Of a DNA stretch of 64,000 nucleotides, positions 35,377 to 55,228 are shown in pieces. The DNA lies in the NCBI GenBank assembly GCA_965371225.1, contig CBDUXP010000013.1, positions 19,247-83,246 on the forward strand, given 5' to 3'. The notes under the pieces are model-generated. The model was not told the DNA's origin, searched no databases, and saw only the letters and a program-made list of their open reading frames with translations. Position 1 is the stretch's first letter. Each line of letters begins with the position of its first letter. This stretch comes from CBDUXP01 sp965371225 [NCBI: uncultured bacterium] (GTDB taxonomy: Bacteria > Abyssobacteria > SURF-5 > CBDUXP01). The translations under genes were made by a program, and so were the position numbers.

Positions 35377-36617
35377 CGCGGCACCGCCGCGGGCTCTGGC
35401 ACCAGTTCGGTGTAGAGGTCGAGCATCCCCTGCGCCAGTTGCGGCCATGCGAATTCCTGCTCCACCCGCGCCCGGCCCGCGCACCCCAGTCGAAGCCGGC
35501 GCTCACGGTCGGCGAGCAAGGCGACCGCGGCCGCAGCGAACGCCTCCGGAGTATCTGCGACGCACACGTCTCGCTCGGCCTCCGCATGCAGACCCTCACA
35601 GCCCACCGAGGTGGACAGCACAGCCTTCTGCATTGCCCACGCATCGAGAACCTTCAGGCGCGTGCCGCCGCCTACGAGCAACGGCACGAAGAAGACGGCC
35701 GCTGCCTGCACGAGCGGACGGATGTCCTCCACCAGGCCGGTGACCGTCACGTGCTCCGGGTCGGCCGCCGCCGCGGCCACGGCGCCCGCCGAGGGGTGGG
35801 ACCCGACGAACGTCACCGTGGCGTCCGGCCGCTCCCGGCGAATGCGCGGCCAGACGTCGCGGAGGAACCACGCGACGCCATCCCGGTTCGGGTACCACGA
35901 CATCCCACCCACGAAAATCAGGTTCGGCGCCGATCCAGCGGGATCGGGGCCGGCACGGAAGTACGCCGTGTCCGTCCCGTTCTCCACCACGTGCACGCGC
36001 GCGCCCGGCGCCATCGCCAGGAAATCCTCGCGGTCGCTTGGGGAAACGGCCACGTGCGCGCCGACGCGCTGAAAACACGCGATCTCATACCGCCGCACCT
36101 TGCGCGCCTGCACGCCGAGGTACCAGCGCGCGGCGGGATTCGCCTCCGCCTCCGCGCGCCGCGCCAGCAGCTTCGACTCCACATTCTGATGGATCAACAC
36201 CTGCGGCAGCGCCGGAGCCAGCGCCCCGTAGGGCGCTAGGGCGAGAGTTTCGAACTGCACCAGGTCGATCTGTTCCCGCCGCAACAGGTCCGCGGCCGCA
36301 GCGCGCAGCGGCGCCGATGCAAAACGGGGCACCAGGTACGGGTCGGCCGACAGGAGGTTGCGCGCGAGCAGTCCGGCATATGCGGCGCGGGACTGTTCCG
36401 TGGGAATGGGAAACACGCGGACTTCCGCGCAGAATTCTTCCAAATGACGGACGGAAGCCGCCAAGGGATCGCCGGATTTGAGCAGGACCGTTTGATTGAA
36501 GGCGTACAGGAAGATGCGGTGGTGGCGGGCCACTTCCCGGAGCAGGTTGTAGCAGCGGAGCAGCACCCCTGAGGTGAGCGGATACGGCACCAGGTTCGAG
36601 AAGAGGAGGATGTTCAT
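35373..36617 (-). CDS. GT4-type glycosyltransferase resembling exosortase-locus sugar transferases
   Basis: 414 residues. The N-terminus NILLFSNLVPYPLTSGVLLRCYNLLREVARHH is similar in design to sugar transferases found in exosortase-linked polysaccharide loci. The C-terminal donor lobe has NLIFVGGMSWYPNRDG, VTGLVEDIRPLVQAAAVFFVPL and GGGTRLKVLDAWAMQKAV, the site where most relatives have Glu rather than Asp. It starts at ATG 36617, overlapping the TGA of the amidotransferase gene; the longer frame reaches 36860 inside that gene. It acts on cytoplasmic lipid-linked glycan. Confidence 0.8.
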   Translation of the reverse strand: MNILLFSNLVPYPLTSGVLLRCYNLLREVARHHRIFLYAFNQTVLLKSGDPLAASVRHLEEFCAEVRVFPIPTEQSRAAYAGLLARNLLSADPYLVPRFASAPLRAAAADLLRREQIDLVQFETLALAPYGALAPALPQVLIHQNVESKLLARRAEAEANPAARWYLGVQARKVRRYEIACFQRVGAHVAVSPSDREDFLAMAPGARVHVVENGTDTAYFRAGPDPAGSAPNLIFVGGMSWYPNRDGVAWFLRDVWPRIRRERPDATVTFVGSHPSAGAVAAAAADPEHVTVTGLVEDIRPLVQAAAVFFVPLLVGGGTRLKVLDAWAMQKAVLSTSVGCEGLHAEAERDVCVADTPEAFAAAAVALLADRERRLRLGCAGRARVEQEFAWPQLAQGMLDLYTELVPEPAAVPR

Positions 36618-38560
36618 GCGTACAGGGATCCGGGCTGGATGTCGTGTTGCGGCCCGGGCGCCGCCGCGCTGCCGAGGTACTCGCGATGCCACAGCATGAA
36701 CGTCAGCAATCCCCAAATGTGATTCACGTAGTTCGCGCGCCGGGCGAAGTGGTCGTCCAGCAGCCGCCGCACCACGGGGTACTCGAACACCCCCGCCTGC
36801 TGCACCGCGGTCCGGGAAAGCACGTCCTCCAGAAACGGCCGCAGCTCGCCGCGGAACCACTCGGGTAGCGGCACGCTGAACCCCATCTTGCGGCGATTCA
36901 AGATGTGCGGCGGTAGCAGGTCCGCCACCGCCCGCTTCAGGATGTGCTTCCGCTCCAGGCCGCGCAATTTCAGCGCCGGGGGAATCGTGGCCGCGTATTC
37001 CAGCACGTGGTGATCCAGGAACGGCACGCGCACCTCCAGCGAGTGCGCCATGGAAATCCGATCGCTCAGGGTCAACAGGTCGCCGGGCAGATACAACTTC
37101 AAATCACAAAACAACGCGCGGTTCAGGGGCGCGGCGTCGGCCACCCCGTTCATGGACCGGCGACACAGGTCCCCCGGCTCGTCCAGGGTGACCTGTTCGC
37201 GCATGCCGGGGCTAAGCAGGTCCTGCCGCAGGGCGGTGCCGAAGGTGGAGATGAGCGCGAAGTACCGCGCGTCGAACTCCAGGTCGAGCCCATGCACGAA
37301 GCGTTTGGCGCGTCCGGTCCACTGGCCGCCCCGCCGGGAATCCGGCAACCGGTCCACCAGCGGCGCCAGTACTCCCTGCCGCAGCCACCGGGGCAGGCGG
37401 CGCAGGTGATTGCCCAGCAGCGCGCCCCGGTAGCGCTCGTACCCGGCCGCGACTTCATCGCCCCCCAGCCCGGAGAGCGCGACGGTCACGTGGCGGCGGG
37501 TCAACTCGCTCAGGTACCAATTCGGAATCGCGGAAGAGTCGGCGAACGGCTGGTCGAACGCCCGCACCAGATGGGGCACCACCTCCGTGAGGTCCGGGCG
37601 GACGACGAACTCGCGATGCTGCGTGGCGTACCGTTCAGCGATCTCCCGCGCGGCCGGCCGTTCGTCGTACAGCTCGCCACCGTCCTCGTAGCCGATGGAA
37701 AACGTGCGGACCGGCTCGGAGCTGTGCGCGGCCATGAGCGCCACCACGCTCGCCGAGTCGATGCCGCCCGAGAGAAACGCGCCGAGTGGCACGTCCGACA
37801 TGAGGCGCACGCGCACCGCGTCCTCCAGGTGGGCGCGCAGGCCCTCCGCGGTCTCGTCCGGCGTCCGCGTCTCGTCCACGTCGTACCGCAGGTCCCAGTA
37901 CTTGCGCACCTCGCAGGCGCCGTTCTCGGCGACCAGCACGTGGCCGGCCTCCAGTTCCTGGAGGTCCTGGAAAATGGTCAGCGGCGCGGGGACGTACAGG
38001 AAGGTGAGGAAGTGGTTGAGCGCTGCGGGACTCAAGCGGCGTTCAACCGCCGGGTGCTGCAGCAGGCATTTCAGTTCGGAGCCCCAGAGCAACTGGCCGT
38101 CGGCCACGGTGTAGAAGAGCTGCTTAATGCCGACGCGGTCGCGGGCGAGCAACAACCGGCCGCGCGGCGCGTCCCACACGGCGAACGCGAACATGCCCCG
38201 CAGATGGGCGACGCAGTCCACCCCATACTCCTCGTAGGCGTGCACGATGACTTCCGTGTCGCAGCGGGTGCGAAACCGGTGGCCGCGCCCTTCCAGCTCG
38301 CGGCGCAACGCCTGGAAGTTGTAGATCTCCCCATTGAACACCACCCACACGGACTCGTCTTCGTTCGCGATGGGCTGGGCGCCGCCGGCAAGATCGATGA
38401 TGGCCAGGCGGCGCATGGCCAGCCCCACGCGGCCTGGATCCTCGTAGAAGCCCTCCCCGTCCGGGCCCCGGTGGGTGATGACCCGGTTCATGGCCTCCAA
38501 CAGGCCCCGGTCGATGGGGAGGCCGCCCTCCAGGGAGTGGATTCCAGCGATGCCGCACAT
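36614..38560 (-). CDS. asnB: asparagine synthase (glutamine-hydrolysing) family amidotransferase
   Basis: 648 residues. After Met comes Cys2, the Ntn glutaminase nucleophile, in MCGIAGIHSLEGG. RGPDGEGFYEDPGRVGLAMRRLAIIDL and EDESVWVVFNGEIYNF follow. The synthetase half shows the PP-loop AFLSGGIDSASVVALMAAH and SGLGGDEVAAGYERY. The family makes asparagine from aspartate. Very similar amidotransferases occur in exosortase-linked polysaccharide loci, where they are assumed to amidate a sugar acid. The start at 38560 is fixed by Cys2; the frame extends to 38785 without meaning. It is the first gene of the minus-strand operon. Confidence 0.85.
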   Translation of the reverse strand: MCGIAGIHSLEGGLPIDRGLLEAMNRVITHRGPDGEGFYEDPGRVGLAMRRLAIIDLAGGAQPIANEDESVWVVFNGEIYNFQALRRELEGRGHRFRTRCDTEVIVHAYEEYGVDCVAHLRGMFAFAVWDAPRGRLLLARDRVGIKQLFYTVADGQLLWGSELKCLLQHPAVERRLSPAALNHFLTFLYVPAPLTIFQDLQELEAGHVLVAENGACEVRKYWDLRYDVDETRTPDETAEGLRAHLEDAVRVRLMSDVPLGAFLSGGIDSASVVALMAAHSSEPVRTFSIGYEDGGELYDERPAAREIAERYATQHREFVVRPDLTEVVPHLVRAFDQPFADSSAIPNWYLSELTRRHVTVALSGLGGDEVAAGYERYRGALLGNHLRRLPRWLRQGVLAPLVDRLPDSRRGGQWTGRAKRFVHGLDLEFDARYFALISTFGTALRQDLLSPGMREQVTLDEPGDLCRRSMNGVADAAPLNRALFCDLKLYLPGDLLTLSDRISMAHSLEVRVPFLDHHVLEYAATIPPALKLRGLERKHILKRAVADLLPPHILNRRKMGFSVPLPEWFRGELRPFLEDVLSRTAVQQAGVFEYPVVRRLLDDHFARRANYVNHIWGLLTFMLWHREYLGSAAAPGPQHDIQPGSLYA

Positions 38561-38845
38561 CGTGTCTGGCCGTAGCAGGAGGCGTGCCGCGGTCCCGGTC
38601 GCGGGGGCGTGCGCCCCGATTCGCGCCGGTTGGGGTTCGTCGTGGCACAGCATCCGCCACGGGGTGCACCCGGCTGCCCGCTCCGTCTCAGCATACCGAA
38701 TTCCGGCGAAAGGGACCACGCGAGGCCATTCGGCCGGGTCGGGAACCAGTGTTGTGCCAAGGGGTTCCGGCGCTGACCGCTCCACGGGACCCCGGCGATC
38801 TGTGTGTGAATAGTCACATGCCGGGAGCCCGAGTTTGGATCATTA

Positions 38846-38864
38846 CCCCCCTATTAGAGGGGGG
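38846..38864. repeat. strong 7-base inverted repeat with homopolymer arms
   Basis: CCCCCCT, loop ATTAG, AGGGGGG. It could be an attenuator, a transcript end, or a protein-binding site between the divergent operons. No T-run follows. Confidence 0.45.
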
Positions 38865-38954
38865 CCAGGTGTTGAAGCTCCGCAACGCGGTGATGCGCGA
38901 CCGCAACCCCAGCGGGGTAGCTGGACCGCAGCGCATCCGGGTAACGGTACGTAA

Positions 38955-38978
38955 CATATTGATATGACATAAGTTATG
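38955..38978. repeat. two adjacent AT-rich palindromes upstream of the sigma-54 promoter
   Basis: CATAT-TG-ATATG (38955-38966) and CATAA-G-TTATG (38968-38978), 24-35 bases before the -24 box. Two adjoining dyads in an AT-rich patch are what an activator or operator site would look like. Confidence 0.45.
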
Positions 38979-39001
38979 CAATATGGCAACCCGCCGCCGG
39001 C

Positions 39002-39017
39002 TGGCATTGGCCTTGCG
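39002..39017 (+). promoter_or_regulatory. sigma-54 (-24/-12) promoter of the polysaccharide/exosortase operon
   Basis: TGGCATTGGCCTTGCG. TGGCA matches the -24 consensus TGGCAC in five of six bases, TTGC is the exact -12 core, and GG (39003) and GC (39015) are 12 bases apart as required. Expected start is about 39027, 47 bases before the first ATG. The next 14.7 kb are one tight run of genes on this strand. Confidence 0.7.
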
Positions 39018-39037
39018 AAAAGTGCGGGCAGGTTTGA

Positions 39038-39055
39038 ACACGTGCGAACACGTGT
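39038..39055 (+). other. leader hairpin directly before the Shine-Dalgarno
   Basis: ACACGTG, tetraloop CGAA, CACGTGT: a perfect 7-base stem. It abuts GGAGGGG at 39056-39062. At DNA level it also reads as two tandem copies of GAACACGTG (39036-39044 and 39046-39054). It could protect the 5' end or limit ribosome access. Confidence 0.5.
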
Positions 39056-39073
39056 GGAGGGGAATGAACGCGT

Positions 39074-39334
39074 ATGGCGAGCAGAGCAGGGGGGGAATCG
39101 CCGGTTCCGGCCGACGGGGAAATCCTGACGACGGAGGAGGCCTGCCGGTTCCTGAAGATCGGCCGCACCAAGCTGTGGCAACTCACGCAGGCCAATGAAG
39201 TCCCGGCCTACCGCGTCGGCAACAGTGCGCGCAGCGAGCTGCGGTACCTGCGCTCCGAGTTGCTGGCGTGGCTGTCGGGCAACCGGCTGACCGGGAAGCG
39301 GGCGCCCAAGGAAGCGCAGCCGGATCATGGGTAG
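39074..39334 (+). CDS. small excisionase/MerR-type helix-turn-helix protein
   Basis: 86 residues. The core ILTTEEACRFLKIGRTKLWQLTQANEVPAYRVGNSARSELRYLRSELLAWL is the HTH_17-type DNA-binding fold (winged helix of the excisionase/MerR class); shorter recognisable parts are LTTEEACRFLKIGRTKLW and RYLRSELLAWL. No integrase or phage gene is near. Being the first gene after the sigma-54 promoter and in the polysaccharide operon, it may act as a local regulator or as a DNA-binding accessory. The Shine-Dalgarno GGAGGGG is 11 bases upstream, a somewhat long spacing. Confidence 0.75.
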   Translation: MASRAGGESPVPADGEILTTEEACRFLKIGRTKLWQLTQANEVPAYRVGNSARSELRYLRSELLAWLSGNRLTGKRAPKEAQPDHG

Positions 39335-39362
39335 CCGGCGCGCTCCGGCGCGGAGTGGCCCC

Positions 39363-40292
39363 ATGCGGCTGAGCATCGTCATTCCCGTCTACAACGAAGT
39401 TGAGAGCATCGGGGCCGTAATCCATGACTGCATCCGGGTGCTCGACGCGGAAAAATTGCCGGGGGAGATCGTCGTGGCGGACGACGGCAGTACGGACGGC
39501 ACGCCCGCCCTCCTGTACGACTTGGCGGCGGACCTGCCCCGGCTTCGGGTGATCTGCTTCCGGCGGAATCGCGGGCAGACGGCCGCCATGGCCGCCGCCA
39601 TCCAGTCTTCTACAGGGGACGTGATCGTCGGGATGGATGGGGATGGGCAGAACGATCCGCGCGACATCCCGCTGTTGCTGGCGAAGATGGCCGAGGGCTA
39701 CGACGTGGTGAGCGGGTGGCGCCGGGAGCGGCAAGATCGGTGGCTGAGCCGCACGTTCCCCTCACGCGTGGCGAACGCGATCATTCGTCTGGTCACCGGC
39801 GTGCCGCTGCACGACAACGGCTGCTCGCTGAAGGCCTACCGGGCGGCGGTGTTGCGCGCGCTGCCCCTGTACAGCGATATGCACCGCTTCTTGCCCGGGC
39901 TGTGCGCCGCGCGCGGGGCACGCGTGGCGGAAGTCGCGGTGCGGCACCACGCGCGAGAGCACGGCCAGTCGAAGTACGGCCTATCGCGCATCTGGAAGGT
40001 GTTGCTGGACATTCTCGGGCTGAAGATGCTCATGACCTTCTCCAGCCGGCCCGCGCAATGGTTCGCGCTGTGCGCGGTGCCGTGGCTCCTGGTGGCGGTG
40101 CTCGCGTTCGGCGCGTGGATCGTGGCGGCCTGGGCCGGGGAGAGCTTCGTGATCTTCCCCGCCATCAGTCTGCTCTGCGCGTACCTCGGCGTGCACCTGT
40201 TGGTTCTGGGGCTCGTGGGCGAGGCCTTCGTGCAGCACAGTCCGTACCGCGGCGTGGGTCTCATACTGCCCCTGGCGGAGGAAACGACATGA
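39363..40292 (+). CDS. GT2 family glycosyltransferase (active DPM1-like)
   Basis: 309 residues. The GT-A fold begins LSIVIPVYNEVESIG, followed by VVADDGSTDGT and the metal/donor motif VGMDGDGQNDP. After residue 200 it has two transmembrane helices (WFALCAVPWLLVAVLAFGAW and LLCAYLGVHLLVLGLVGEAF), as in polyprenyl-phosphate sugar synthases. It probably makes a polyprenyl-phosphate hexose used by the membrane GT-C proteins encoded downstream. ATG 39363 is preferred, with GGAG seven bases upstream; ATG 39327 overlaps the previous stop and adds 12 residues. Its own TGA overlaps the next ATG (ATGA). Confidence 0.85.
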   Translation: MRLSIVIPVYNEVESIGAVIHDCIRVLDAEKLPGEIVVADDGSTDGTPALLYDLAADLPRLRVICFRRNRGQTAAMAAAIQSSTGDVIVGMDGDGQNDPRDIPLLLAKMAEGYDVVSGWRRERQDRWLSRTFPSRVANAIIRLVTGVPLHDNGCSLKAYRAAVLRALPLYSDMHRFLPGLCAARGARVAEVAVRHHAREHGQSKYGLSRIWKVLLDILGLKMLMTFSSRPAQWFALCAVPWLLVAVLAFGAWIVAAWAGESFVIFPAISLLCAYLGVHLLVLGLVGEAFVQHSPYRGVGLILPLAEETT

Positions 40293-41305
40293 CGACTATT
40301 GCCCAGGCATCCATCCCGCCGGTTGCGGGGCCCGACACTGCGGCCGACGCGCACGACCCCGAGGCGGCGGCTGCGGCTCCTGCGGTGTCCCTCATCGTGC
40401 CGGTGGTGGAACGGGCCGGGGACCTCCGCGAAATCTACGCCGCCTATGCCGAGGCGCTGGAGGCCGCGGGCTACACGTTCGAATGTCTCTTCGTGATCAA
40501 CGCCGGCTGGGACACGGTCGCGGCACAGGCGGAGGCGCTGGCGCAGGAAGACGACCGCGTACACCTGCATCGCTTTCGGCGGAATTTCGGCGAGTCCGCC
40601 TCCTTGAGCTACGGCATTCGGCAGGCGCGCGGGGCCATTCTCTGCACCATCCCCGCGTACCTCCAGGTGGAACCGGCCGCACTGGTGCCGTTAATCCGGG
40701 CGGTGGAAGCCGGGTCGGACCTGGTCATCGCGCGCCGCTGGCCGCGCACCGACCCGGCCCTGAACCAGTTGCAGACGCGGCTGTTCGCGTGGCTCGTGGG
40801 GAAGACCGCGCACGTGCGCCTGCGCGACGTGAGCTGCGGTGTGCGCGCCATGCGCCGCGAAGTGGCGGAACGCCTGCCCCTGTACGGCGATCTGCACCGC
40901 TTCATCCCGGTGCTCGCGGACCGCGAAGGGTACCGGGTTACCGAGATCGACGCGCGCCAGAGCGCGCAGGACTCCACGCTGCGCATCTACGGCGGCACCA
41001 CGTATCTGCGCCGGCTGTTGGACCTGCTGACGCTGGTGTTCCTCGTGCGCTTCACGCACAAGCCCCTGCGCTTCTTCGGCATGATCGGTGCCGCACTCTT
41101 CGGCACGGGCGTGCTAGTGGACGGATATCTGACCTTGCAACGCCTGTTCGGGGAGACGGCCCTCGCGAACCGGCCCCTGCTGCTCCTGGGCACGCTGCTG
41201 ATCGTGCTCGGCGTGCAGATCGTGTCGGTGGGGTTGCTCGGGGAAATCGTCGTGTACGTCAATGCGCGACAGGGATCTGATGACGTCTTCCGTCCCCAGC
41301 CCTAG
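40289..41305 (+). CDS. GT2-like paralogue lacking catalytic motifs (probable pseudoenzyme)
   Basis: 338 residues, same fold and membrane layout as the gene before it: VSLIVPVVERAGDLR, then RFRRNFGESASLSYGIRQARG, and two C-terminal helices. The key acidic motifs are gone. Where the partner has VADDGSTDGT this protein has VINAGWDTV, and where the partner has MDGDGQNDP it has IPAYLQVEP. Both aspartate clusters needed for nucleotide-sugar and metal binding are thus missing, yet the reading frame is intact and the C-terminal membrane part well kept. It is likely a non-catalytic partner or regulator of the preceding GT2. The genes are coupled by ATGA overlap. Confidence 0.75.
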   Translation: MTTIAQASIPPVAGPDTAADAHDPEAAAAAPAVSLIVPVVERAGDLREIYAAYAEALEAAGYTFECLFVINAGWDTVAAQAEALAQEDDRVHLHRFRRNFGESASLSYGIRQARGAILCTIPAYLQVEPAALVPLIRAVEAGSDLVIARRWPRTDPALNQLQTRLFAWLVGKTAHVRLRDVSCGVRAMRREVAERLPLYGDLHRFIPVLADREGYRVTEIDARQSAQDSTLRIYGGTTYLRRLLDLLTLVFLVRFTHKPLRFFGMIGAALFGTGVLVDGYLTLQRLFGETALANRPLLLLGTLLIVLGVQIVSVGLLGEIVVYVNARQGSDDVFRPQP

Positions 41306-42785
41306 CCGCGCCGGACGCGGTTGGGATCGCCGCGACTGGATCTGCCTCGCGCTTCTGCTCGTGGGCGCGGCCGCGTTGCGCCTGCCTACGTTGGGGCGCT
41401 GGAGCATCTGGATGGATGAGGCGTTCACCATCCACGATGCGTTCGTGCCCCCGGGGGCCGCGTCCAGCGCCGCGATTGGGCTGTCGGGACCGCAACCGCT
41501 GAACTACTGGCTGGTGAGTTTCGCGCTCCGGTGGTGGGGCACGAGCGAAGTCAGCGTGCGCTTGCTGCCCTGCCTCACGGGCATCGCCGCGGTGGGCGTG
41601 CTGTACGCCGGCATGCGCCGGAATGTGGGGCGGGGGTGTGCGTTCCTGGCCGCCAGCTTCTTGGCGCTCTCCTCGTGGCACGTGTACTGGTCGCAGAACG
41701 CGCGGCATTACGCGCCCATGATGCTGGCCGCCACGGTGGCGGCCTTCGCCGGCTTCGAGGCGATTCATCGGCGCCGCATCGGGTGGGGGGTCGTGGCGCT
41801 CGCGGCGCTGGCGGTCGCCACGTTGACGCACCTGACCGCCGTGCTGTTGGCGGGCGCGCTGGGGCTCTTCGCGGTGTGGCGGTACGCCGGAGAGTGGCGG
41901 CGGCTGTCCGCGCGCGGGTGGATGGTCGTGGCGCTGCTGGTCGGGGGCTTGGGGACGCTGTTCATGCTGCGCGCCTGGACCGTGTTCGAACAACTGGCGG
42001 CAAAAGTGCAACCCGGCGGCAGCCTGCCGTACTTCCTCGCCACAGTCCTCCAGTATGTGGAAATTCCCTTGCTGGTGGCGGCCGGCGCGGGCCTCATCGC
42101 GGCGTGGAACGCCGACCGGGCGTGGGGCGCTTTTCTCGGCGCGTACGCGCTCGTACCCCTGGCCGGCATCATGGCGTGTGCGCTGGTGTGGAACGTCAGC
42201 GCCTTGTATGCGTTCGCCGTGCTGCCCGGCGTGTGCGCCCTGGCAGCGCACGCGGCCACCGGGCTGGCGCGCGCGCCGCTTGGGGGACCGCTCGCGGGTG
42301 CGCTCGTGGCGCTGGTGGTCCTGGGCCATCAGGCGGGCGAGACGCTGCTGTACCACACGCATCGGCATGGGAACCGCCCGCGCTGGCGGGAAGCGGCCGC
42401 GTACCTGCAGCAGCAGGGCGTGCCCCCCGCCGCGATCGCGAGCACCGGGGCGCCCGCCCTGGCGTACTACCTGGACTATGCGCCGACGGAGTTGCGCGCG
42501 CCCCAACCCATCACGTGGTTAGGGCCGCCGGAGAGCGTCGACCGCGTGATCCGTGCGCCGGGCCGGCAATGGCTCGTGGTGAAGGCCGATCGGCTGGCCC
42601 TGACGGACCCGGATGGCCGGTTGCGCGCGTGGCTGGCGGACCATGCGGTGATCGTGGCCGAGTACCCCGCATGGACGAACGTGAAAGACCGGACGATTCG
42701 GATTTATCGGTCGGACCCGGCCGCGCCCTCGCCCACGTCGCGCGCCCATGCGCCGGCGACCGCGCCGCCCCGGGAGGCCACATGA
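41280..42785 (+). CDS. GT-C membrane glycosyltransferase (family 39/ArnT-like)
   Basis: 501 residues with about 11 transmembrane helices. The first extracytoplasmic loop after helix 1 has WMDEAFTIHDAF, where the DE pair is the catalytic acidic site of polyprenyl-phosphate-sugar-dependent GT-C enzymes. A soluble C-terminal domain begins near residue 370. It would transfer a sugar from a polyprenyl carrier outside the membrane, consistent with the two upstream GT2-type proteins. The start at 41280 lies inside the previous gene (26-base overlap); ATG 41262 is an alternative. Confidence 0.75.
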   Translation: MTSSVPSPSRAGRGWDRRDWICLALLLVGAAALRLPTLGRWSIWMDEAFTIHDAFVPPGAASSAAIGLSGPQPLNYWLVSFALRWWGTSEVSVRLLPCLTGIAAVGVLYAGMRRNVGRGCAFLAASFLALSSWHVYWSQNARHYAPMMLAATVAAFAGFEAIHRRRIGWGVVALAALAVATLTHLTAVLLAGALGLFAVWRYAGEWRRLSARGWMVVALLVGGLGTLFMLRAWTVFEQLAAKVQPGGSLPYFLATVLQYVEIPLLVAAGAGLIAAWNADRAWGAFLGAYALVPLAGIMACALVWNVSALYAFAVLPGVCALAAHAATGLARAPLGGPLAGALVALVVLGHQAGETLLYHTHRHGNRPRWREAAAYLQQQGVPPAAIASTGAPALAYYLDYAPTELRAPQPITWLGPPESVDRVIRAPGRQWLVVKADRLALTDPDGRLRAWLADHAVIVAEYPAWTNVKDRTIRIYRSDPAAPSPTSRAHAPATAPPREAT

Positions 42786-43990
42786 CCGGGAGCGCGCGCG
42801 GGACGGCGATGGCGGGGCCGCCGCTTACTGCGAAGCCGGCCGCCGTGCCCGTGCTGTACGTGGACGCGAGTTTGACCGTGGGCGGTGCGCCCACGTCGCT
42901 CGCATTGCTGTTGCGCCACGTGCAGGGGGTCCGGCCTGTGGTGCAGTACAGCCTGCCCGAGTCGCAGGCCACGCCGTTTTCGGCATGGGACGCCACGTAC
43001 GTGCCCCACTGGGATCCCCCCGTTACCGGCAAGGGCTGGCGTAAGGATGGCGCGCGCAATGGGGGCGTGCCGGCATTGCTGCACGTGGGACAGCGTCTGT
43101 GGCGCCAATTGCGCCCCGCGGCGCAACGGACGGCGGCGCTGGCGCGCGCTTCGGGTGCGCGGCTGATTCACTGCAACAACCAGATCAGCACGAACTTGCC
43201 CGCGATCCTGGCGGCGCGCTGGCTGGGCATTCCCTGCATCGTGCATCACCGGGGTTATGAGCGTGGCGCCCGGCTGCCCCGCGCCTTGTCGCGCTTCGTC
43301 GCCCACCACATCTGCGTGTCCCAGAGCATCGCGGACCACTTGATCGCGTGGGGCGTGCCGGCCGCCAAGGTCAGCGTGATCCACAACGGGATCGCCGTCG
43401 AAGCGGGACCACCGCCGCGGCCGTGCACGCCGACGGTGACCGTAGGAGCGGTGGGCCGGTTCGTGCGCTGGAAAGGTCTTCACGTGGCGGTCGAGGCGGC
43501 GTTGCGCGTCGCGGTGGATTGTCCCCAGGCGCGGTTCATGTTCGTCGGCGGCGTCCACCCGAACATCCCCGAGTATCACGCCGAGCTGGAAGCACTGGTG
43601 AAAGCCGGCCCGCAGGCGGACCGGATTGCGTTCCTCGGCCATCGGGCCGATGCGGCGGCGCTTATGCAGCAGATGGACATTCTCATGCACACGTCCATCG
43701 AGCCCGAACCGTGCGCGCGGGTGCTGCTCGAGGGCATGGCCGCCGGTTGCGCGGTGGTCACCACCGATGTGGGCGGATCGCCCGAGCTGGTGGCCGATGG
43801 CGCGGGCCGCGTGTTGCCTGCGGGGGATGTGGACGCCTTGGCGCGCGAACTGCGCGCGCTCATTACCGACCCGGCGGCGCGGCGGGCGTTGCAGGAGCGC
43901 GGGCTGGCCCAAGTGCAGGCCCGCTTCAGCGCCGCGCGCGTGGCGCGGCAAGTGGAGGGGTTGTATGCCGTCTGCCTCGGCACGGCGTGA
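42782..43990 (+). CDS. GT4 family glycosyltransferase
   Basis: 402 residues. The GT-B acceptor lobe has VLYVDASLTVGGAPTSLALLL. The donor lobe shows VTVGAVGRFVRWKGLHVAVEAA, RIAFLGHRADAAALMQQMDILMH and the E-x7-E motif in EPCARVLLEGMAAGCAVVTT. ATGA overlap with the GT-C gene. It adds a sugar to a lipid-linked intermediate in the cytoplasm. Confidence 0.85.
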   Translation: MTGSARGTAMAGPPLTAKPAAVPVLYVDASLTVGGAPTSLALLLRHVQGVRPVVQYSLPESQATPFSAWDATYVPHWDPPVTGKGWRKDGARNGGVPALLHVGQRLWRQLRPAAQRTAALARASGARLIHCNNQISTNLPAILAARWLGIPCIVHHRGYERGARLPRALSRFVAHHICVSQSIADHLIAWGVPAAKVSVIHNGIAVEAGPPPRPCTPTVTVGAVGRFVRWKGLHVAVEAALRVAVDCPQARFMFVGGVHPNIPEYHAELEALVKAGPQADRIAFLGHRADAAALMQQMDILMHTSIEPEPCARVLLEGMAAGCAVVTTDVGGSPELVADGAGRVLPAGDVDALARELRALITDPAARRALQERGLAQVQARFSAARVARQVEGLYAVCLGTA

Positions 43991-45284
43991 GCGGGTAGCG
44001 GGCGGCACGTTCGCCCGCTTCGCGTGGGGGCTGCTGCTCGTCTTCGTCATTCTGTACTTCGCGCGCCCGCAGGACACGTACGGCTTCGCGTTTCCCGGCC
44101 TGCTGAAGATCGTGGCGCTGCCCATGTGCGGGTGTTGGGTGCTCGCCATCGTCGTGGAGGGGTGCTGGCCCCCGCTGCACGTCCGGCAGGTGCGCTGGCT
44201 GTTGGGCCTGCTCGCGCTGATGGCGTTCTCCACGGTATTCGCGCTCGTGTTCCGCTACGCCATCCTGAGCACCATCTACGTGGGGCAACACATCGTGTTG
44301 CCCGTCATCGTCGCGGCGACCTTGGTGTCCACCCGGGAGCGCTTCTATACGTTGATGCACTGGTTCGCCGGCGCGGTAGCCCTGCTCGCGGTGGAGGGGG
44401 TGCGGATTTACGTGTTGCCGGGCGGCCGCCGCTGGGCGGGCGGCATCAGCGGACACTTCGTCGGCGGCCCGAACGAATTCGCGCTCTTCGTCGCCATGTT
44501 CCTGCCGCTGCTCGTGTTCATGGCGCTCACCCGGAAGACGGTGCGCTGGCGCCGGGTGTGGTGGGTGCTCAGCGCCTGCGCCCTCGCCGGTGCCGTCTTC
44601 ACCTTTTCCCGCGGCGCGTTCCTCGCCCTCGCGGGCATGGGGTGCTACATGCTGTATCGGTCGTCGGGCCATCGTGGAGGCTTGGCCGCCATGGCGGTGG
44701 GCGTGCTGCTGGTGCTCTACCTGGCGCTGCCCGCGTCGTACTGGGAGAATCTGCAAGGGGTCGGGCCCCACCGGACCCGCAGCGGGAAGGTGGAGTTTGC
44801 CGACGGCTCCGCGCAGGGCCGGTACGAAGCCTGGCAGGCGGCGGTCCTCATGGCCAAGGATCGTCCGCTGACCGGCGTCGGCCCCGGCAACTCCTGGGCG
44901 GCCATGTGGGAGACTTACCGGCCCGAGGGGGTGAAACGCGCCCGGCCGGCGCACAGCATGTACTTCGACATGCTGGGGGACCTGGGTATCCCCGGCGTGC
45001 TCTGGCTCGTCGGCCTCGGCGTGCTCAACGTGCGGACGGCGCGTGCCGTCCAGCGCAAGGCGGCGCAGGACGGCGATCGGGATGCGGCGCTCCTGGGCCA
45101 GGCGCTTGAGCTGAGCGTGGTCGGGCTCATGGTGGGCGGCGCGTTCCTGTCCGTCGCGTTCCACCCGCAGCTGTACTGGCTCGCGTTCTTTATCGGCGCG
45201 CTGGGCGACGTGGGCATCGCCGCCCCCGCCGCGGCGCCGGTGCCGGTCCCCGTGCGGCCGCGCTACGGGTTGGTGCGCACGTGA
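43965..45284 (+). CDS. O-antigen ligase/Wzy-like polymerase
   Basis: 439 residues with about 11-12 transmembrane helices. The large periplasmic loop contains EAWQAAVLMAKDRPLTGVGPGNS and HSMYFDMLGDLGIPGVLWL, the Wzy_C/O-antigen ligase pattern. Related 'O-glycosylation ligase' proteins sit in exosortase-linked loci. It is either the polymerase of the repeat units or a ligase that moves the finished glycan to a protein or lipid. ATG 43965 has GGAGGGG upstream and overlaps the end of the preceding gene by 26 bases. Confidence 0.8.
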   Translation: MPSASARRERVAGGTFARFAWGLLLVFVILYFARPQDTYGFAFPGLLKIVALPMCGCWVLAIVVEGCWPPLHVRQVRWLLGLLALMAFSTVFALVFRYAILSTIYVGQHIVLPVIVAATLVSTRERFYTLMHWFAGAVALLAVEGVRIYVLPGGRRWAGGISGHFVGGPNEFALFVAMFLPLLVFMALTRKTVRWRRVWWVLSACALAGAVFTFSRGAFLALAGMGCYMLYRSSGHRGGLAAMAVGVLLVLYLALPASYWENLQGVGPHRTRSGKVEFADGSAQGRYEAWQAAVLMAKDRPLTGVGPGNSWAAMWETYRPEGVKRARPAHSMYFDMLGDLGIPGVLWLVGLGVLNVRTARAVQRKAAQDGDRDAALLGQALELSVVGLMVGGAFLSVAFHPQLYWLAFFIGALGDVGIAAPAAAPVPVPVRPRYGLVRT

Positions 45285-46441
45285 CCCCGCGGTGCCAGGT
45301 CGACGTGCTGCAGGTGGTGCCCACGCTCGCGGTCGGCGGCCTCGAGCGGGTGGCGACGGACTTGTGCGTGCAGTTGCGCGACCGGTTCCAGATCGGCGTC
45401 GCGTGCCTGCGGGGCGAGGGCCCTCTGGCCGAGGTGCTCCGCGACGCCGGCGTGCCCGTGTACAGCTGGGGCCCGCAACACGGACGCCGGGGCGGATACT
45501 CTGCGCCCCTTCGCCTGCGCCGGTTGCTGCGCGACAGCCCCGTGCGCGTGGTGCATTCCCACAATCCGCCGTCGCTGTTCAGCAGTGTCCCCGCCACGCG
45601 CGGCCGTCCTGGTATTCAGCTCATCCACACGGACCACGCCCGCAAGTTTCCCGGCCGGCGGCACTACATGCTCGGCGAACGGCTGTGCGCGCCGGCGACC
45701 TATCGTTTTGTGGCGGTCAGCGAGCGGGGCAAGCGGGACGTGATGCAGTACGAACACATTCCCGCCGCGCACATTCAGGTCATTCCAAACGGGGTAGAGA
45801 CGGCCCGCTTCGCGTCGGTGCCGCCGCCGGCGTTCGATCCCGAGCGCGGAATCGTACTCGGTGCAGTCGCGCGCCTCACCCAGGAAAAAGCGCTCGGCGC
45901 GCTGCTCGACGCTGCCGCGACGCTCGTAGCGGAAGGCCTGTCCATCCGGGTGCACCTGGCCGGCGATGGTCCCTTGCGCCCGCACCTGGAACAACAGGCG
46001 CGTACGCTCGGCCTGGCCGACCGCGTGCACTTCCTCGGGTATCGGGCGGACGTGCCCGCCGTGCTGGCCGCGGTGGATGTGGTGGTGTCATCCTCGACGC
46101 GGGAGGGGATGCCGCTCGGACTCTTGGAGGCCATGGCGGCGGGACGGCCCGTGGTGGCGACCGCGGTGGGGGGCGTGCCGGAAGTGGTTGTCGACGGTGA
46201 GACGGGGCTGTTGGTGCCGCCGGGCGATGGGCCCGCGCTGGCCGCAGCGGTGCGGCGGGTAGTGGTGGACCCTGCGTGGGGCCGCGCGCTCGGCGCGGCG
46301 GGCCGCGCGCGGGCGACGGCGCACTTCTCGCTGGCGCGCACCGTGGCGCAGTATGCCGCCCTGTACGACGAGGCGTTGGCGAGCCTGGGGGCGTGCGCGC
46401 GGGCGACCGCCTCCGCCGCCGCGCTGGGAAGGCTGCTGTAG
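45281..46441 (+). CDS. GT4 family glycosyltransferase
   Basis: 386 residues. VDVLQVVPTLAVGGLERVATDLC begins the acceptor lobe. The donor lobe carries VLGAVARLTQEKALGALLDAA, RVHFLGYRADVPAVLAAVDVVV and TREGMPLGLLEAMAAGRPVVAT. Its starting pattern resembles a class of sugar transferases in exosortase loci. The GTG start overlaps the TGA of the ligase (GTGA), so its synthesis depends on translation of that gene. Confidence 0.85.
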   Translation: MTPRCQVDVLQVVPTLAVGGLERVATDLCVQLRDRFQIGVACLRGEGPLAEVLRDAGVPVYSWGPQHGRRGGYSAPLRLRRLLRDSPVRVVHSHNPPSLFSSVPATRGRPGIQLIHTDHARKFPGRRHYMLGERLCAPATYRFVAVSERGKRDVMQYEHIPAAHIQVIPNGVETARFASVPPPAFDPERGIVLGAVARLTQEKALGALLDAAATLVAEGLSIRVHLAGDGPLRPHLEQQARTLGLADRVHFLGYRADVPAVLAAVDVVVSSSTREGMPLGLLEAMAAGRPVVATAVGGVPEVVVDGETGLLVPPGDGPALAAAVRRVVVDPAWGRALGAAGRARATAHFSLARTVAQYAALYDEALASLGACARATASAAALGRLL

Positions 46442-46443
46442 TC

Positions 46444-47559
46444 ATGGCCGTGGTGTTCTGGGTGAGCCTCGGCGTGGTGGCTTACACGTACGTCGGCTAC
46501 TTTGTGGTGCTCGTTTTGCTGCGCGGCCTGCGGTCCCGTCCCGTTCATGCGGCCCCGGCCACACCGGCACTCAGCGTTATCGTCCCAGTGCACAACGCCG
46601 GTTCCCGCATCGGGGCCAAGCTCGACAACCTCCTGGCCTCGGACTATCCGCGGGAGGCGATGCAGATCATCGTCGTGTCCGACGGGTCCACCGACGACAC
46701 GGTGTCTGTGGTGAACGCCCGTGCCGACGAGGGCGTCACGTTGCTCGCGCTCAGCGTGCGGGGCGGCAAGGAGGTGGCGCAGCGGGCGGCCCTGGCGCAC
46801 GCCACCGGCGACATCTGCGTGTTCACGGATGTGGCGGCGCGGATCGAACCGGACGGGCTGCGGCGCATCGTGGAGCCGTTCGCCGATCCCACAGTGGGCG
46901 CGGTCACGGGGCACAACATCGCGGGCGCCGGGAGCGCGGAGCGCACGTTCATCGGGTACGACATGATGCTGCGGGAACTGGAATCGGCGCTCGGCAGTGT
47001 GGTGGGGCTCAGCGGCGCGTTCAGTGCCCTGCGGCGCGAGCTGTGCGATGTGTGGCCGGAAGATGTGCCCAGCGATTTCTACATGATGCTAGTCACCGTG
47101 CTGCGCGGGTACCGGGGCGTCTACGCGCGGCGCGCGACGGTGCGATACGGAGTGGTGCACTCCCTGCCGGCGGAGTTCCAGCGCAAGGTGCGTACCGTGC
47201 AACGCGGGTTGGCGGCGCTCATGCGCGTGCCCCGCGTCCTGCTCCCGTGGCGCACCGGGGTATTCGCGCTGCAGGTGTTCAGCCACAAGCTGCTCCGCTG
47301 GTGCGTCCCCTTCTTCCTCGCCCTCGCGCTCGCGAGTAACATCGCCCTCAGCGGGTCCGCGCCGTACGCGTCGCTCCTGCTGGTGCAACTGGTTGCCTAC
47401 GCCGTGGCCGCGGCGGCGCTGCTGCGCCCGCGCCTGCAAGCCTTCTTCCCCTTCCGGCTGCTGGGATTTTTCATTGTGTCGAACGCGGCGGTAGTGGTGG
47501 CGTGGTTGCGCTACTGGCGCCAAGGGGGGGTGCAGGTATGGCAGCCGTCCGTGCGGTAG
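46444..47559 (+). CDS. GT2 family glycosyltransferase with membrane helices
   Basis: 371 residues. An N-terminal helix (VVFWVSLGVVAYTYVGYFVV) precedes the GT-A domain: ALSVIVPVHNAGSRI, IIVVSDGSTDDT and ICVFTDVAARIEPD, with a single Asp in the donor motif region. VVGLSGAFSALRREL replaces the usual ED-type acceptor motif, and RKVRTVQRGLAAL follows in the place of the Q/RxxRW motif. Three C-terminal helices follow. It is of the processive-type class (cellulose/hyaluronan synthase-like topology) but could be non-processive. Confidence 0.78.
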   Translation: MAVVFWVSLGVVAYTYVGYFVVLVLLRGLRSRPVHAAPATPALSVIVPVHNAGSRIGAKLDNLLASDYPREAMQIIVVSDGSTDDTVSVVNARADEGVTLLALSVRGGKEVAQRAALAHATGDICVFTDVAARIEPDGLRRIVEPFADPTVGAVTGHNIAGAGSAERTFIGYDMMLRELESALGSVVGLSGAFSALRRELCDVWPEDVPSDFYMMLVTVLRGYRGVYARRATVRYGVVHSLPAEFQRKVRTVQRGLAALMRVPRVLLPWRTGVFALQVFSHKLLRWCVPFFLALALASNIALSGSAPYASLLLVQLVAYAVAAAALLRPRLQAFFPFRLLGFFIVSNAAVVVAWLRYWRQGGVQVWQPSVR

Positions 47560-48716
47560 CCGGCGCCCCCCTGCGGGTTGGCCACGTGCTCACCGGCGAC
47601 GCGTGGGCCGGCGCCGAAGCGCAGGCGTGGCACTTGGTGCACCGGTTGCCGGAACATGGCGTGCAGCCGCACGTGGCGCTCCTGAACCCGGGCGAAACGG
47701 CGGAGCGGTTCGCAGCGCTCGGCGTGCCGGTCACGCTGCTGGACGAGCACGTCCTCGGCCGGCGTGCGCTGGCGCGGCGGTTGCGCGCGTGGATGGGGGA
47801 CGCGCGTCTGAACCTCGTGCACACACACAAGTACAAGAGCCACCTGTTCAGCGTCTGGGCGACGCGCGGCGACGCGGGGCCCGCGATCGTCCGCACACTC
47901 CACGGCGCACCGGAGGTGCCCGCCGGGTGGCGCTGGGTGAAGGGCAGCGTCGCGAACGCGCTCGACGGCTGGGCCCTGCGCGGGCGCACGGCGGCGGTCA
48001 TCGCGGTGTCCCAGGAACTGGCGGCCCGGTTCCGTTCACGTCTGGGCCGGACGCCTTTGCACACGATTCCCAACGGGGTGGTCTGTCCGCCGGTGCCGCC
48101 GGCCGTCCCGCCACATCCGCCGCGCTTGGTCTTCTGCGGCCGGCTGGCGCCGGTGAAGCGTGTGGACCGGCTCATTCGCGCGCTCGCGGTGATCCGCGCC
48201 GCCGTTCCCGAGGCGGAACTCTGGATCGTCGGCACCGGGTCGGAGGAGCCGGCGTTGCGCGCACTCGCTCGCTCGGTGGGCGTGTCCGAGGCGGTGCAGT
48301 TTTGCGGGTGGCGGCCGGACGTACCGGACCTGTTGGCGCAGAGCGATGTAGTCGTGATGAGTTCACGGCACGAGGGGTTGCCCATGATCGTGTTGGAGGC
48401 CGGCGCGGCGGGGAAGCCCGTCGTCGCGCCCCGCGTCGGTGGCATTCCGGAAGCCGTGCGCGACGGGGAGACCGGCGTCCTGGTGGATGACGCCACGCCG
48501 ACGGCACTCGCGGCGGCGTGCGTGTCGGTGTTGCAGGATCGCGCGCGCGCGGACGCCATGGGCCGCGCAGCGCGCCAGCATGTGGCGACGAACTTTTCGG
48601 TGGAAGCCATGACGGCGGCCACGAGCGCGCTGTACACCGCGGTGCTCGCCGGTGCGGTAGATGTGAACCTGCGGCCGGCGCCGGCTGCGTCTGCGGTGGG
48701 GGAGGGGGCGGCATGA
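47538..48716 (+). CDS. GT4 family glycosyltransferase
   Basis: 392 residues. The acceptor lobe starts LRVGHVLTGDAWAGAEAQAWHLV. The donor lobe has PRLVFCGRLAPVKRVDRLIRAL, AVQFCGWRPDVPDLLAQSDVVV and RHEGLPMIVLEAGAAGKPVVA with the E-x7-E pair. The ATG at 47538 overlaps the end of the preceding GT2 by 22 bases, and GGGGGG precedes it. Its own stop overlaps the exosortase start. Confidence 0.83.
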   Translation: MAAVRAVAGAPLRVGHVLTGDAWAGAEAQAWHLVHRLPEHGVQPHVALLNPGETAERFAALGVPVTLLDEHVLGRRALARRLRAWMGDARLNLVHTHKYKSHLFSVWATRGDAGPAIVRTLHGAPEVPAGWRWVKGSVANALDGWALRGRTAAVIAVSQELAARFRSRLGRTPLHTIPNGVVCPPVPPAVPPHPPRLVFCGRLAPVKRVDRLIRALAVIRAAVPEAELWIVGTGSEEPALRALARSVGVSEAVQFCGWRPDVPDLLAQSDVVVMSSRHEGLPMIVLEAGAAGKPVVAPRVGGIPEAVRDGETGVLVDDATPTALAAACVSVLQDRARADAMGRAARQHVATNFSVEAMTAATSALYTAVLAGAVDVNLRPAPAASAVGEGAA

Positions 48717-49561
48717 GCGCTCCCAGCCAAGCGGACCGCCGCGCCGTGGTGCAGGGCGCGGTCCTGTGGGGCGCCGGACTCCTGGCGCTGGGCCTGCTGT
48801 ATCGCGAAACCCTCTGGGATTGGTACCGGTTCCTGAAGGGGGACTTGGAAGAGGGACTGGGCATGCTGGTGCCGCCGCTGGTGGGGTATCTGGTTTGGCG
48901 GCGGCGCGACGCGTTGGCGCAGACGCCGGCCGGCGTGTCGTGGGCCGGGGCCCTGGCATTCGTCGTTGCGATGGCCTTCACGGCGGGGACGGAAGCGCTC
49001 TGGTTCGGCACCGGTGCCCGGTTGGGCCTGTGGTGCGCCGTCGCAACCTTGACGTGGGCCGCGTGGGGCGGCTCGTGGACGCGAGTGCTGGTGGTGCCGC
49101 TGCTGTTCCTGTTCTTCGCGCAACCCATGCCGGTCACCCTCTCGGACCTTCTCACGCATCCGTTGCGGTTGCGCGTGACGGCGCACGCGGCGCAGGTGCT
49201 GTCGCTGGGTGGGTTGCCCGCCGTGGCCGAGGGCGTGCTGCTGCACATGCCGCGCGCCACATTGGAGACGACGGCGGCGTGCAGTGGGGTGCGCGGGTTC
49301 GTGGCGGCGGTGGCGGTGGCGCTGCTCTTGGCGGACTTGGTGCCGGGGCCGCGGCTCACCACGGCGGCGATGTTCCCCGGCGCGTTGCTCGTAGCCTATG
49401 TGTTGAATCTGGTGCGCGTGATGATGGAAGCGGTGTGGACCAGCGTCGCGGGCGGCCCGTCGGCCGCGATAGTCCACACGAGCTTTGGGCTGTTCACTTT
49501 CGCCGGTGTGGCGTGGATCCTTGCGATATGGCAATTACGGACGAGCGACGGTTTCAGCTAG
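48713..49561 (+). CDS. exosortase
   Basis: 282 residues with about eight transmembrane helices. The catalytic triad of exosortase/archaeosortase proteins is visible: Cys190 in TAACSGVRGFV, Arg235 in NLVRVMMEA and His255 in HTSFGLFTF. VVPLLFLFFAQPMP precedes these and is another family block. Exosortases cleave PEP-CTERM or related signals at the C-terminus of exported proteins in polysaccharide-producing Gram-negative bacteria. The ATG overlaps the previous stop (ATGA). No protein in this window ends in a recognisable PEP-CTERM signal, so its substrates lie elsewhere. Confidence 0.92.
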   Translation: MSAPSQADRRAVVQGAVLWGAGLLALGLLYRETLWDWYRFLKGDLEEGLGMLVPPLVGYLVWRRRDALAQTPAGVSWAGALAFVVAMAFTAGTEALWFGTGARLGLWCAVATLTWAAWGGSWTRVLVVPLLFLFFAQPMPVTLSDLLTHPLRLRVTAHAAQVLSLGGLPAVAEGVLLHMPRATLETTAACSGVRGFVAAVAVALLLADLVPGPRLTTAAMFPGALLVAYVLNLVRVMMEAVWTSVAGGPSAAIVHTSFGLFTFAGVAWILAIWQLRTSDGFS

Positions 49562-50220
49562 TCGCGGTCTGCGTGGCCGTGACGCTCGCGTGCGCGTGGG
49601 GGGTGCAGTGGACCGCCCGCGGTGCAGCGCGCGAACCGGTGCCGGGGCAGCCCGCGGCTCCGCTGGACCGGCTGGTGCCGCTGCAGTTGGCGGGCGCGAC
49701 GGCGCGGTCGGTGCCCGTGAGCCAAGGGGTGTTCGACCGGCTCGCGGCGGCGGGGTACCTTTTCCGCGAGTACACGGACGGCGACGGGGCCGTCGTGTGG
49801 CTGTGGATCGGCTATTACGACAACCAGCGGGACGCCACGGTCCACAGCCCGCGCGGCTGCTATCGCGGCAGTGGCTGGATCGCCACGGTGGACCGGAACG
49901 TCTCGGCGGAGGACGCACCGGTCGAGTGGCCGTTGCGGTGGTTGCGGGTGCGGCGCGAGTCCGAGGAGCGGCTCGTGCTCTACTGGTATGAAACGGCGTA
50001 CGGGCCGGTGGCGTCGGAACTCCAGCGCAACCTGCACCGGCTGCGGGGCCGCATCGGCGGCAACACGGCGTTGTTCTTCGTGCGGCTGTCGACGCCGGTC
50101 GGCGGCGGCGCGGATGATGCCAGCCGGCTGCTGCGCATGGCCCGTGCCGTGCGCCAGGCGCTCGGCGCGCACGTGGCGGCGGCCCCGGGGACGCCCCTGC
50201 GCGTGAAGGCGGAGGGGTAG
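49528..50220 (+). CDS. EpsI-domain exosortase-associated protein
   Basis: 230 residues: an N-terminal transmembrane helix (QLVAVCVAVTLACAWGV), then an extracytoplasmic domain. YYDNQRDATVHSPRGCYRGSGW is the EpsI core with the H-S-P-x-x-C motif. Proteins of this domain are encoded next to, or fused to, exosortases. The role is unsettled, perhaps in transferring or presenting the polysaccharide that accepts the sorted protein. Its start overlaps the end of the exosortase by 34 bases, indicating strict co-expression. Confidence 0.88.
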   Translation: MAITDERRFQLVAVCVAVTLACAWGVQWTARGAAREPVPGQPAAPLDRLVPLQLAGATARSVPVSQGVFDRLAAAGYLFREYTDGDGAVVWLWIGYYDNQRDATVHSPRGCYRGSGWIATVDRNVSAEDAPVEWPLRWLRVRRESEERLVLYWYETAYGPVASELQRNLHRLRGRIGGNTALFFVRLSTPVGGGADDASRLLRMARAVRQALGAHVAAAPGTPLRVKAEG

Positions 50221-50221
50221 G

Positions 50222-53763: not shown

Positions 53764-53769
53764 AGGAGG

Positions 53770-53786: not shown

Positions 53787-53825
53787 ATGTCCGCCGCGAC
53801 GCCGGCCGCGTCCGCCGATGCGACC

Positions 53826-55212: not shown

Positions 55213-55228
55213 TGGCACCCGGCTTGCG
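55213..55228 (+). promoter_or_regulatory. sigma-54 (-24/-12) promoter of the lyase
   Basis: TGGCACCCGGCTTGCG. TGGCAC is the full -24 consensus, TTGC the full -12 core, and GG (55214) and GC (55226) are 12 bases apart. Expected start is about 55239, 75 bases before the ATG. Confidence 0.75.

What the first reader, a model, noticed from the sequence alone, without database searches (positions are those of the whole stretch)
39002..39017. Near-consensus sigma-54 promoter drives the whole polysaccharide/exosortase operon
TGGCATTGGCCTTGCG has the conserved GG and GC 12 bases apart, TGGCA in the -24 box and an exact TTGC. It lies 57 bases before a run of 14 genes that overlap or nearly touch. The operon includes exosortase, EpsI, polymerase, glycosyltransferases and a sulfotransferase. 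It suggests that the entire pathway is under one enhancer-dependent switch.
Basis: partly seen in the sequence, partly recalled or inferred. Interest (0 to 1): 0.72.

Follow-up and report, generated by a model that had tools for sequence, protein, structure and literature searches.

The report
Sigma-54 promoter before sugar-polymer operon
A bacterium for which no close sequenced relative was found appears to place a 14-gene pathway for a surface sugar polymer, and a nearby secreted enzyme that may cut such polymers, behind two on/off switches of the same type, close to genes for the kind of regulator that flips such switches.

Summary
The site is real: TGGCATTGGCCTTGC at 39002-39016, correct -24/-12 spacing, 57 nt before a tightly packed 14-gene run. 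The letters alone prove little: against the full (recalled) consensus it scores 9 of 12, as do 43 other sites in the window. Position makes the case. TGGCAN6TTGC occurs twice in 64 kb; both copies are intergenic, correctly oriented and close upstream of genes (0 of 3000 shuffles of the upstream DNA give two). The second, at 55213, precedes a secreted heparinase-like/PKD protein. A sigma-54 activator with GAFTGA and a kinase lie at 61582-63998. The window's only IHF-consensus match lies 37 nt upstream. In an Acidobacteriota family the motif recurs downstream of an XrtA-type amidotransferase in 6 of 6 closest orthologues, the starting genome included. Published Proteobacteria use sigma-54/PrsKR for PEP-CTERM proteins, reportedly not for polymer synthesis, so this would be a variant. 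Not shown: transcript start, RpoN dependence, enhancer, the acting regulator, the organism. 'Entire pathway under one switch' overreaches: other polysaccharide genes in the window have no exact site.

The parts
39002..39016 (+). Proposed sigma-54 promoter P1 (-24 TGGCA, -12 TTGC); predicted transcript start near 39028
   Evidence: start position inferred from the usual -12 geometry
38952..38964 (-). IHF-consensus match TATCAATATGTTA, 37 nt upstream of P1; contains a weak sigma-70-like -35 (TTGATA 38959-38964, + strand)
   Evidence: only match in the window; 4 of 3000 local shuffles have one
39074..39334 (+). g1: 86-aa HTH_17 DNA-binding protein, first gene of the operon
   Evidence: Pfam PF12728 1.3e-11
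39327..40292 (+). g2: family 2 glycosyltransferase (start 39327 or 39363)
40289..41305 (+). g3: family 2 glycosyltransferase
41262..42785 (+). g4: PMT_2-type membrane glycosyltransferase
42782..43990 (+). g5: GT4 glycosyltransferase
43965..45284 (+). g6: Wzy_C / exosortase-A-associated ligase-like protein (TIGR03097 164 bits, cut-off 188)
45281..46441 (+). g7: GT4, XrtA-system type (stp2-like, below cut-off)
46444..47559 (+). g8: GT2
47538..48716 (+). g9: GT4
   Evidence: longer reading from 47502
48713..49561 (+). g10: exosortase (EpsH family; XrtA nearest named subfamily)
   Evidence: PF09721 1.2e-39 (longer reading from 48518); TIGR03109 114 bits, cut-off 208
49528..50220 (+). g11: EpsI (DUF3485)
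   Evidence: longer reading from 48766; start
50222..51562 (+). g12: PMT_2-like membrane protein (22.5 bits, below the Pfam cut-off 26.1)
51562..52737 (+). g13: GT4; start uncertain (GTG at 51562, or 51529 in my gene call)
   Evidence: longer reading from 51145
52738..53763 (+). g14: sulfotransferase, last gene of the operon
   Evidence: PF13469 3.2e-41
55213..55227 (+). Second proposed sigma-54 promoter P2 (TGGCACCCGGCTTGC), 86 nt before the start at 55314
   Evidence: (best matrix score in the window; 0.9 as good expected in shuffles)
55314..61559 (+). Secreted heparinase-like protein with PKD repeats; no PEP-CTERM-like tail
   Evidence: (HepB model 107 bits, cut-off 600)
61582..62973 (-). 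NtrC-family response regulator: receiver, AAA+ with GAFTGA, Fis-type HTH
62970..63998 (-). Sensor histidine kinase, N-terminal side cut by the window end; overlaps the regulator gene
36614..38560 (-). XrtA-system-type amidotransferase, divergent from the operon; no convincing sigma-54 site of its own
   Evidence: TIGR03108 699 bits, cut-off 817

Best explanation
39002-39016 is a sigma-54 (RpoN) promoter for the 14-gene operon 39074-53763. RNA polymerase with sigma-54 sits there in a closed complex. An NtrC-family activator, perhaps the one at 61582-62973 phosphorylated by the kinase beside it, binds an upstream enhancer not yet identified. The DNA between may be bent by IHF at 38952-38964. ATP hydrolysis through the GAFTGA loop opens the promoter, giving a transcript from about 39028 through the sulfotransferase. 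A second sigma-54 promoter at 55213 co-expresses a secreted heparinase-like/PKD protein that could trim or bind the polymer. Shown here: both sites, their non-random position, the operon layout, an activator with its key motifs. Inferred: promoter activity, RpoN in the genome, activator identity, IHF, lyase function.
For: Two of two exact TGGCAN6TTGC sites in 64 kb are intergenic, sense-oriented, 57 and 86 nt before genes, though only 5.4% of the window is noncoding by my gene calls (0 of 3000 shuffles). Only the sigma-54 spacing gives upstream hits. Both distances fit the published range for such sites before PEP-CTERM genes (mean 71, SD 38.5; PMC1569441, passages read). A sigma-54 activator with receiver, Walker motifs, GAFTGA and Fis HTH lies with a kinase in the window. 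The sole IHF-consensus match in the window lies just upstream. In an Acidobacteriota family, 6 of 6 closest amidotransferase orthologues (the starting genome and five others, 67-85% identity) carry an exact site downstream of that gene, while 20 of the other 24 loci carry none; each of the five longer stretches read holds no other exact match; 5 of 6 of those genomes gave an RpoN match.
Against: Full-consensus score is ordinary (9 of 12) and the matrix score is 4th in the window. No enhancer shared by P1 and P2 was found, and TTTACA, the end of the published activator motif, is absent near both. In 119 other loci 4 of 26 exact matches are intergenic, against about 2.2 expected from their noncoding share, so the pattern alone is a poor predictor. 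No relative with the same operon was found, so this very site has no conservation test. RpoN, IHF and the organism are unknown because no genome is held. PMC9012009 (passage) says that polymer synthesis was unaffected in Zoogloea prsK/prsR mutants and not regulated by RpoN1 in Aquincola and Azoarcus. A housekeeping-like pair at 54915-54944 (9 of 12; 1.3 expected in shuffles) lies upstream of P2.
Confidence: 0.74

Rival explanations
1. The operon is driven by a housekeeping (sigma-70 type) promoter in the AT-richer stretch 38950-38990, for example TTGATA-17-TATGGC (38959-38987), and the sigma-54-like letters are chance.
For: The last 100 nt before P1 are 57% GC in a 69% GC window, and TTGATA matches 5 of 6 of the -35 box; read by eye.
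Against: The hexamer pair is only 8 of 12 and was not listed by the scan, whose limit is 9. The stretch equally matches IHF. Chance does not easily explain two well-placed sigma-54 sites.
Confidence: 0.15
2. Both kinds of promoter act: a basal housekeeping start plus inducible sigma-54 control, so RpoN modulates rather than switches the pathway. (This overlaps with the best explanation; the odds are not exclusive.)
For: A 513-nt divergent gap leaves room. Published Proteobacteria keep polymer synthesis without RpoN1 or PrsKR (PMC9012009, passage).
Against: The only housekeeping-like pair listed in 38300-55600 is at 54915, outside the operon; other promoter types were not scanned.
Confidence: 0.3
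3. The sites are genuine sigma-54 promoters, but the activator is another regulator elsewhere in the genome, not the one at 61582-62973. (Also not exclusive of the best explanation.)
For: No shared enhancer found. The regulator and kinase resemble AtoC/AtoS models more than PrsR/PrsK and pass none of the cut-offs among the 25 models shown for each.
Against: The regulator gene ends 22 nt after the P2 gene, in convergent orientation, within the same cluster.
Confidence: 0.35

Closest known systems
PrsK-PrsR / RpoN regulon of proteobacterial PEP-CTERM genes (Haft 2006, PMC1569441; Aquincola pepA, PMC9850573)
   Same: Sigma-54 sites a few tens of bases before genes of an exosortase/polysaccharide system; NtrC-family regulator and kinase near polysaccharide genes.
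   Different: Here the predicted target is the assembly operon with exosortase and EpsI, and a lyase-like protein without PEP-CTERM-like tail; regulator and (incomplete) kinase fall below PrsR/PrsK cut-offs; TTTACA absent near the sites.
Desulfovibrio vulgaris DVUA0057 regulator (PMC3333781, passages read)
   Different: I saw no statement that the assembly operon is a target.
Recurring TGGCAN6CTTGC-type site in front of a glycosyltransferase/amidotransferase run in an Acidobacteriota family (found here)
   Same: Same core letters and the same kind of XrtA-type amidotransferase neighbourhood, outside Proteobacteria.
   Different: The site follows the amidotransferase on the same strand; in G017 the exosortase is about 32 kb away and the 60 kb read hold no other exact site.
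Predicted sigma-54 regulation of polysaccharide genes in Myxococcia (PMC12316311, passages read)
   Same: A matrix survey reports enrichment of glycosyltransferases and a polysaccharide export protein family among predicted sigma-54 targets.
   Different: No mention of exosortase or PEP-CTERM in its main text.

Membership tests
Sigma-54 (-24/-12) promoter | GG and GC at the fixed spacing with TGGC and TTGC boxes | tested here: met
Sigma-54 (-24/-12) promoter | Position a short distance upstream of a gene, more often than chance | tested here: met
   (2 sites, 0 of 3000 shuffles)
Sigma-54 (-24/-12) promoter | Enhancer for an activator upstream | tested here: inconclusive
   no significant shared element between P1 and P2
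Sigma-54 (-24/-12) promoter | Activator with GAFTGA available | tested here: met
   link to these promoters not shown
Sigma-54 (-24/-12) promoter | rpoN in the genome; transcript start about 12 nt after GC; RpoN dependence | not testable with these tools
   no genome held
PrsK-PrsR PEP-CTERM regulon | PrsR and PrsK equivalogs (TIGR02915, TIGR02916) | tested here: not met
   372 bits, cut-off 503; 101 bits, cut-off 300, kinase incomplete in the window
PrsK-PrsR PEP-CTERM regulon | Motif 1 ending TTTACA, 32-92 nt before the sigma-54 site | tested here: not met
   single exact TTTACA in the window, at 32805; the full 17-nt motif was not available to me
PrsK-PrsR PEP-CTERM regulon | Target genes encode PEP-CTERM proteins | tested here: not met
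   P2 gene: no PEP-CTERM family hit, tail read; a crude tail scan of the window printed nothing. Not every operon protein was scanned with NCBIfam
XrtA (exosortase A) type polysaccharide locus | Exosortase with EpsI and XrtA-associated glycosyltransferases, ligase, amidotransferase | tested here: inconclusive
   relatives of all present; EpsI passes its cut-off, but the XrtA-specific models score below theirs

The most novel reading that the evidence does not exclude
Outside the known proteobacterial scheme, where sigma-54 controls exosortase substrates, this lineage and some Acidobacteriota use sigma-54 to switch polysaccharide assembly genes themselves; here one local two-component pair would co-induce synthesis, sulfation and surface attachment of a polymer together with a secreted lyase for it.
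Probability: 0.35. Interest if true: 0.5.

Novelty: new variant of a known kind. Interest (0 to 1): 0.4.

Why it matters
Sigma-54 promoters are silent without their activator, so this would make synthesis of the surface polymer strictly conditional. In the published cases whose passages I read, RpoN governs anchored PEP-CTERM proteins and not polymer synthesis; a switch placed on the assembly operon and exosortase would be a different wiring. The recurring Acidobacteriota site gives a testable parallel in a second lineage.

Tried and rejected
Relatives: a genome-contig scan with the amidotransferase gave 80 loci, best 49% identity, none with this operon; the nearest in content, L017, has exosortase, EpsI and ligase relatives in another arrangement. 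Exosortase searches over nine genome sets (43, 19, 294, 95, 347, 82, 247, 246 and 244 genomes, some genomes in two sets) listed nothing above 34% identity, under E-value limits that differed between calls. The phylum of the window stays unknown and the site itself has no footprint.

Enhancer: best ungapped matches between the two upstream regions and shared words stayed within or near shuffles; the candidates CAGCATCCGC and CGGTAC are over-frequent in the window at large and so not specific. Known RNA element in the gap: none; the fold is somewhat stable (z -2.2). A divergent sigma-54 site for the amidotransferase (CGGCACGCCTCCTGCT, 38574-38589, -, 10 of 12) was set aside as likely chance, since transcription would begin about 3 nt before the start codon that I infer from the conserved MCGI start; my gene caller puts the start at 38653 instead. 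PEP-CTERM substrate in the window: none found by a crude scan. Geobacter paper PMC10599522 (passages) did not bear on the question.

The sigma-54 consensus and weight matrix are recalled, not taken from a call; the first IHF pattern was recalled, the second follows PMC7962754.

Full report
What was claimed and what is there. The sequence TGGCATTGGCCTTGCG stands at 39002-39017 on the + strand, with GG and GC at the sigma-54 spacing. It precedes by 57 nt the start of an 86-aa HTH_17 protein, the first of 14 genes that overlap or lie at most 2 nt apart up to 53763 (with g2 at 39327, since my caller's 39363 would leave 28 nt). The genes are: HTH_17; two GT2; a PMT_2-type membrane transferase; GT4; a Wzy_C/exosortase-A-associated ligase-like protein; GT4; GT2; GT4; exosortase; EpsI; a second, weaker PMT_2-like protein; GT4; sulfotransferase.

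Is it more than chance? By letters alone, hardly. TGGCAN6TTGC is expected 0.48 times in a shuffled window and 7 of 100 shuffles have two or more. With one mismatch allowed the count equals chance (15 against 14.8). With the full recalled consensus the site scores 9 of 12, as do 43 other sites, and five score 10. With a recalled matrix it ranks 4th, with 3.0 equal or better expected.

Position changes this. Only 5.4% of the window is noncoding by my gene calls. Both exact matches fall there, both in sense orientation, 57 and 86 nt before genes. Among 21 upstream segments (2957 nt) the shuffle mean is 0.006 and none of 3000 shuffles has two. Of 14 spacer lengths tried, only 6 gives upstream hits.

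The second site. It precedes a protein of about 2080 residues (start 55314) with a signal-like N-terminus, a heparinase-like part and PKD repeats. Two sulfotransferase-family genes lie between the two sites (g14 and 53826-54929). That suggests a sulfated polymer and an enzyme acting on it, which is inference. A housekeeping-like pair at 54915-54944 is a rival start for this gene.

The activator. At 61582-62973 (-) lies an NtrC-family response regulator with receiver, Walker motifs, GAFTGA and a Fis-type HTH, overlapping a histidine kinase cut by the window end. It scores below the PrsR cut-off (372 of 503) and higher against AtoC (454, also below cut-off), so it is not filed as PrsR. GAFTGA activators work with sigma-54 (established knowledge), which suggests that the organism has RpoN, but no genome is held.

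DNA between enhancer and promoter. The only IHF-consensus match in the window is at 38952-38964, 37 nt upstream of the -24 box; by whole-window shuffles one match somewhere is not rare (18 and 40 of 100 for the two patterns), but 4 of 3000 local shuffles contain one. IHF commonly binds between enhancer and promoter at RpoN promoters (PMC7962754, abstract and passages). Against this: the same letters contain a weak housekeeping -35 (TTGATA), P2 has no such match, and IHF in this organism is unknown. I found no enhancer shared by the two promoters.

Comparative evidence. I found no relative that carries this operon, so the site itself could not be footprinted. In 119 other loci, 26 exact matches were found and 4 are intergenic, against about 2.2 expected from their 8.5% noncoding share: the pattern is not predictive by itself. 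One of the four (L026) led to an Acidobacteriota family. Of 27 genomes searched there, 23 had amidotransferase matches and 30 loci were given. The six closest orthologues (the L026 gene itself, and five others of 67-85% identity) all carry an exact site downstream of the gene; of the other 24 loci, three show the same physical sites from a neighbouring amidotransferase, one has a separate site, and 20 have none. From the coordinates, the site follows the amidotransferase by about 80-140 nt in five and by about 0.9 kb in G714, where another gene intervenes. In five of these genomes I read 181 kb around the site; no other exact match is there, and the site points into a glycosyltransferase and/or amidotransferase run (in G873 my caller found no glycosyltransferase next to it; in G883 it misread the amidotransferase itself). 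In the six-sequence alignment TGGCA and TTGC are invariant by construction, because the stretches were cut out by that pattern; the added invariant letters are the C before and the TC after TTGC, while most flanking columns vary. Five of six genomes gave an RpoN match; the sixth (G885) gave none. In G017 the exosortase lies about 32 kb away on the same contig without an exact site of its own.

Known background. Haft 2006 (PMC1569441, abstract and passages) found a sigma-54 motif before 99 of 167 proteobacterial PEP-CTERM genes, on average 71 nt (SD 38.5) before the start, with an upstream motif ending TTTACA, and only in Proteobacteria among the species discussed. RpoN1 dependence of one such gene was shown in Aquincola (PMC9850573, abstract and passages). 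PMC9012009 (passages) states that polymer synthesis was unaffected in Zoogloea prsK/prsR mutants and not regulated by RpoN1 in Aquincola and Azoarcus. In Desulfovibrio a related regulator binds PEP-CTERM gene regions (PMC3333781, passages). A survey of predicted sigma-54 regulons (PMC12316311, passages) reports glycosyltransferase and polysaccharide export families among enriched targets in Myxococcia, so sigma-54 control of polysaccharide genes in general is not new; its main text does not mention exosortase. My searches listed no paper that I recognised as describing sigma-54 control of an exosortase assembly operon; I read passages only of the papers named here, and the library lacks most subscription journals.

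Verdict. 'Entire pathway under one switch' overreaches: other polysaccharide genes in the window, including the divergent amidotransferase group, have no exact site, and a second promoter extends the set to the lyase-like gene. It is a variant of known exosortase-linked sigma-54 control, of moderate interest.

Noticed in passing
13530-16294: A VIT/von Willebrand protein followed by a sortase-domain protein (PF04203): perhaps a second surface-sorting system beside the exosortase.
   Followed up: no
39038-39055 and 55240-55251: Perfect dyads ACACGTGCGAACACGTGT and GCCAATATTGGC just downstream of the two predicted transcript starts; possible operators, significance not tested.
   Followed up: partly
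54970-54992: Near-perfect 23-nt palindrome TATACGGCAATAATTGCCGGATA about 220 nt upstream of P2; possible enhancer, or operator of the divergent sulfotransferase-like gene.
   Followed up: no
38846-38864: C6-TATTAGA-G6 hairpin in the divergent gap; no Rfam family there.
   Followed up: partly
L120-L125; G017 contig C98, about 122277: Recurring sigma-54-like site downstream of an XrtA-type amidotransferase in an Acidobacteriota family.
   Followed up: yes
10460-13473: A further two-component pair (regulator with Trans_reg_C output domain, and kinase) on the minus strand.
   Followed up: no
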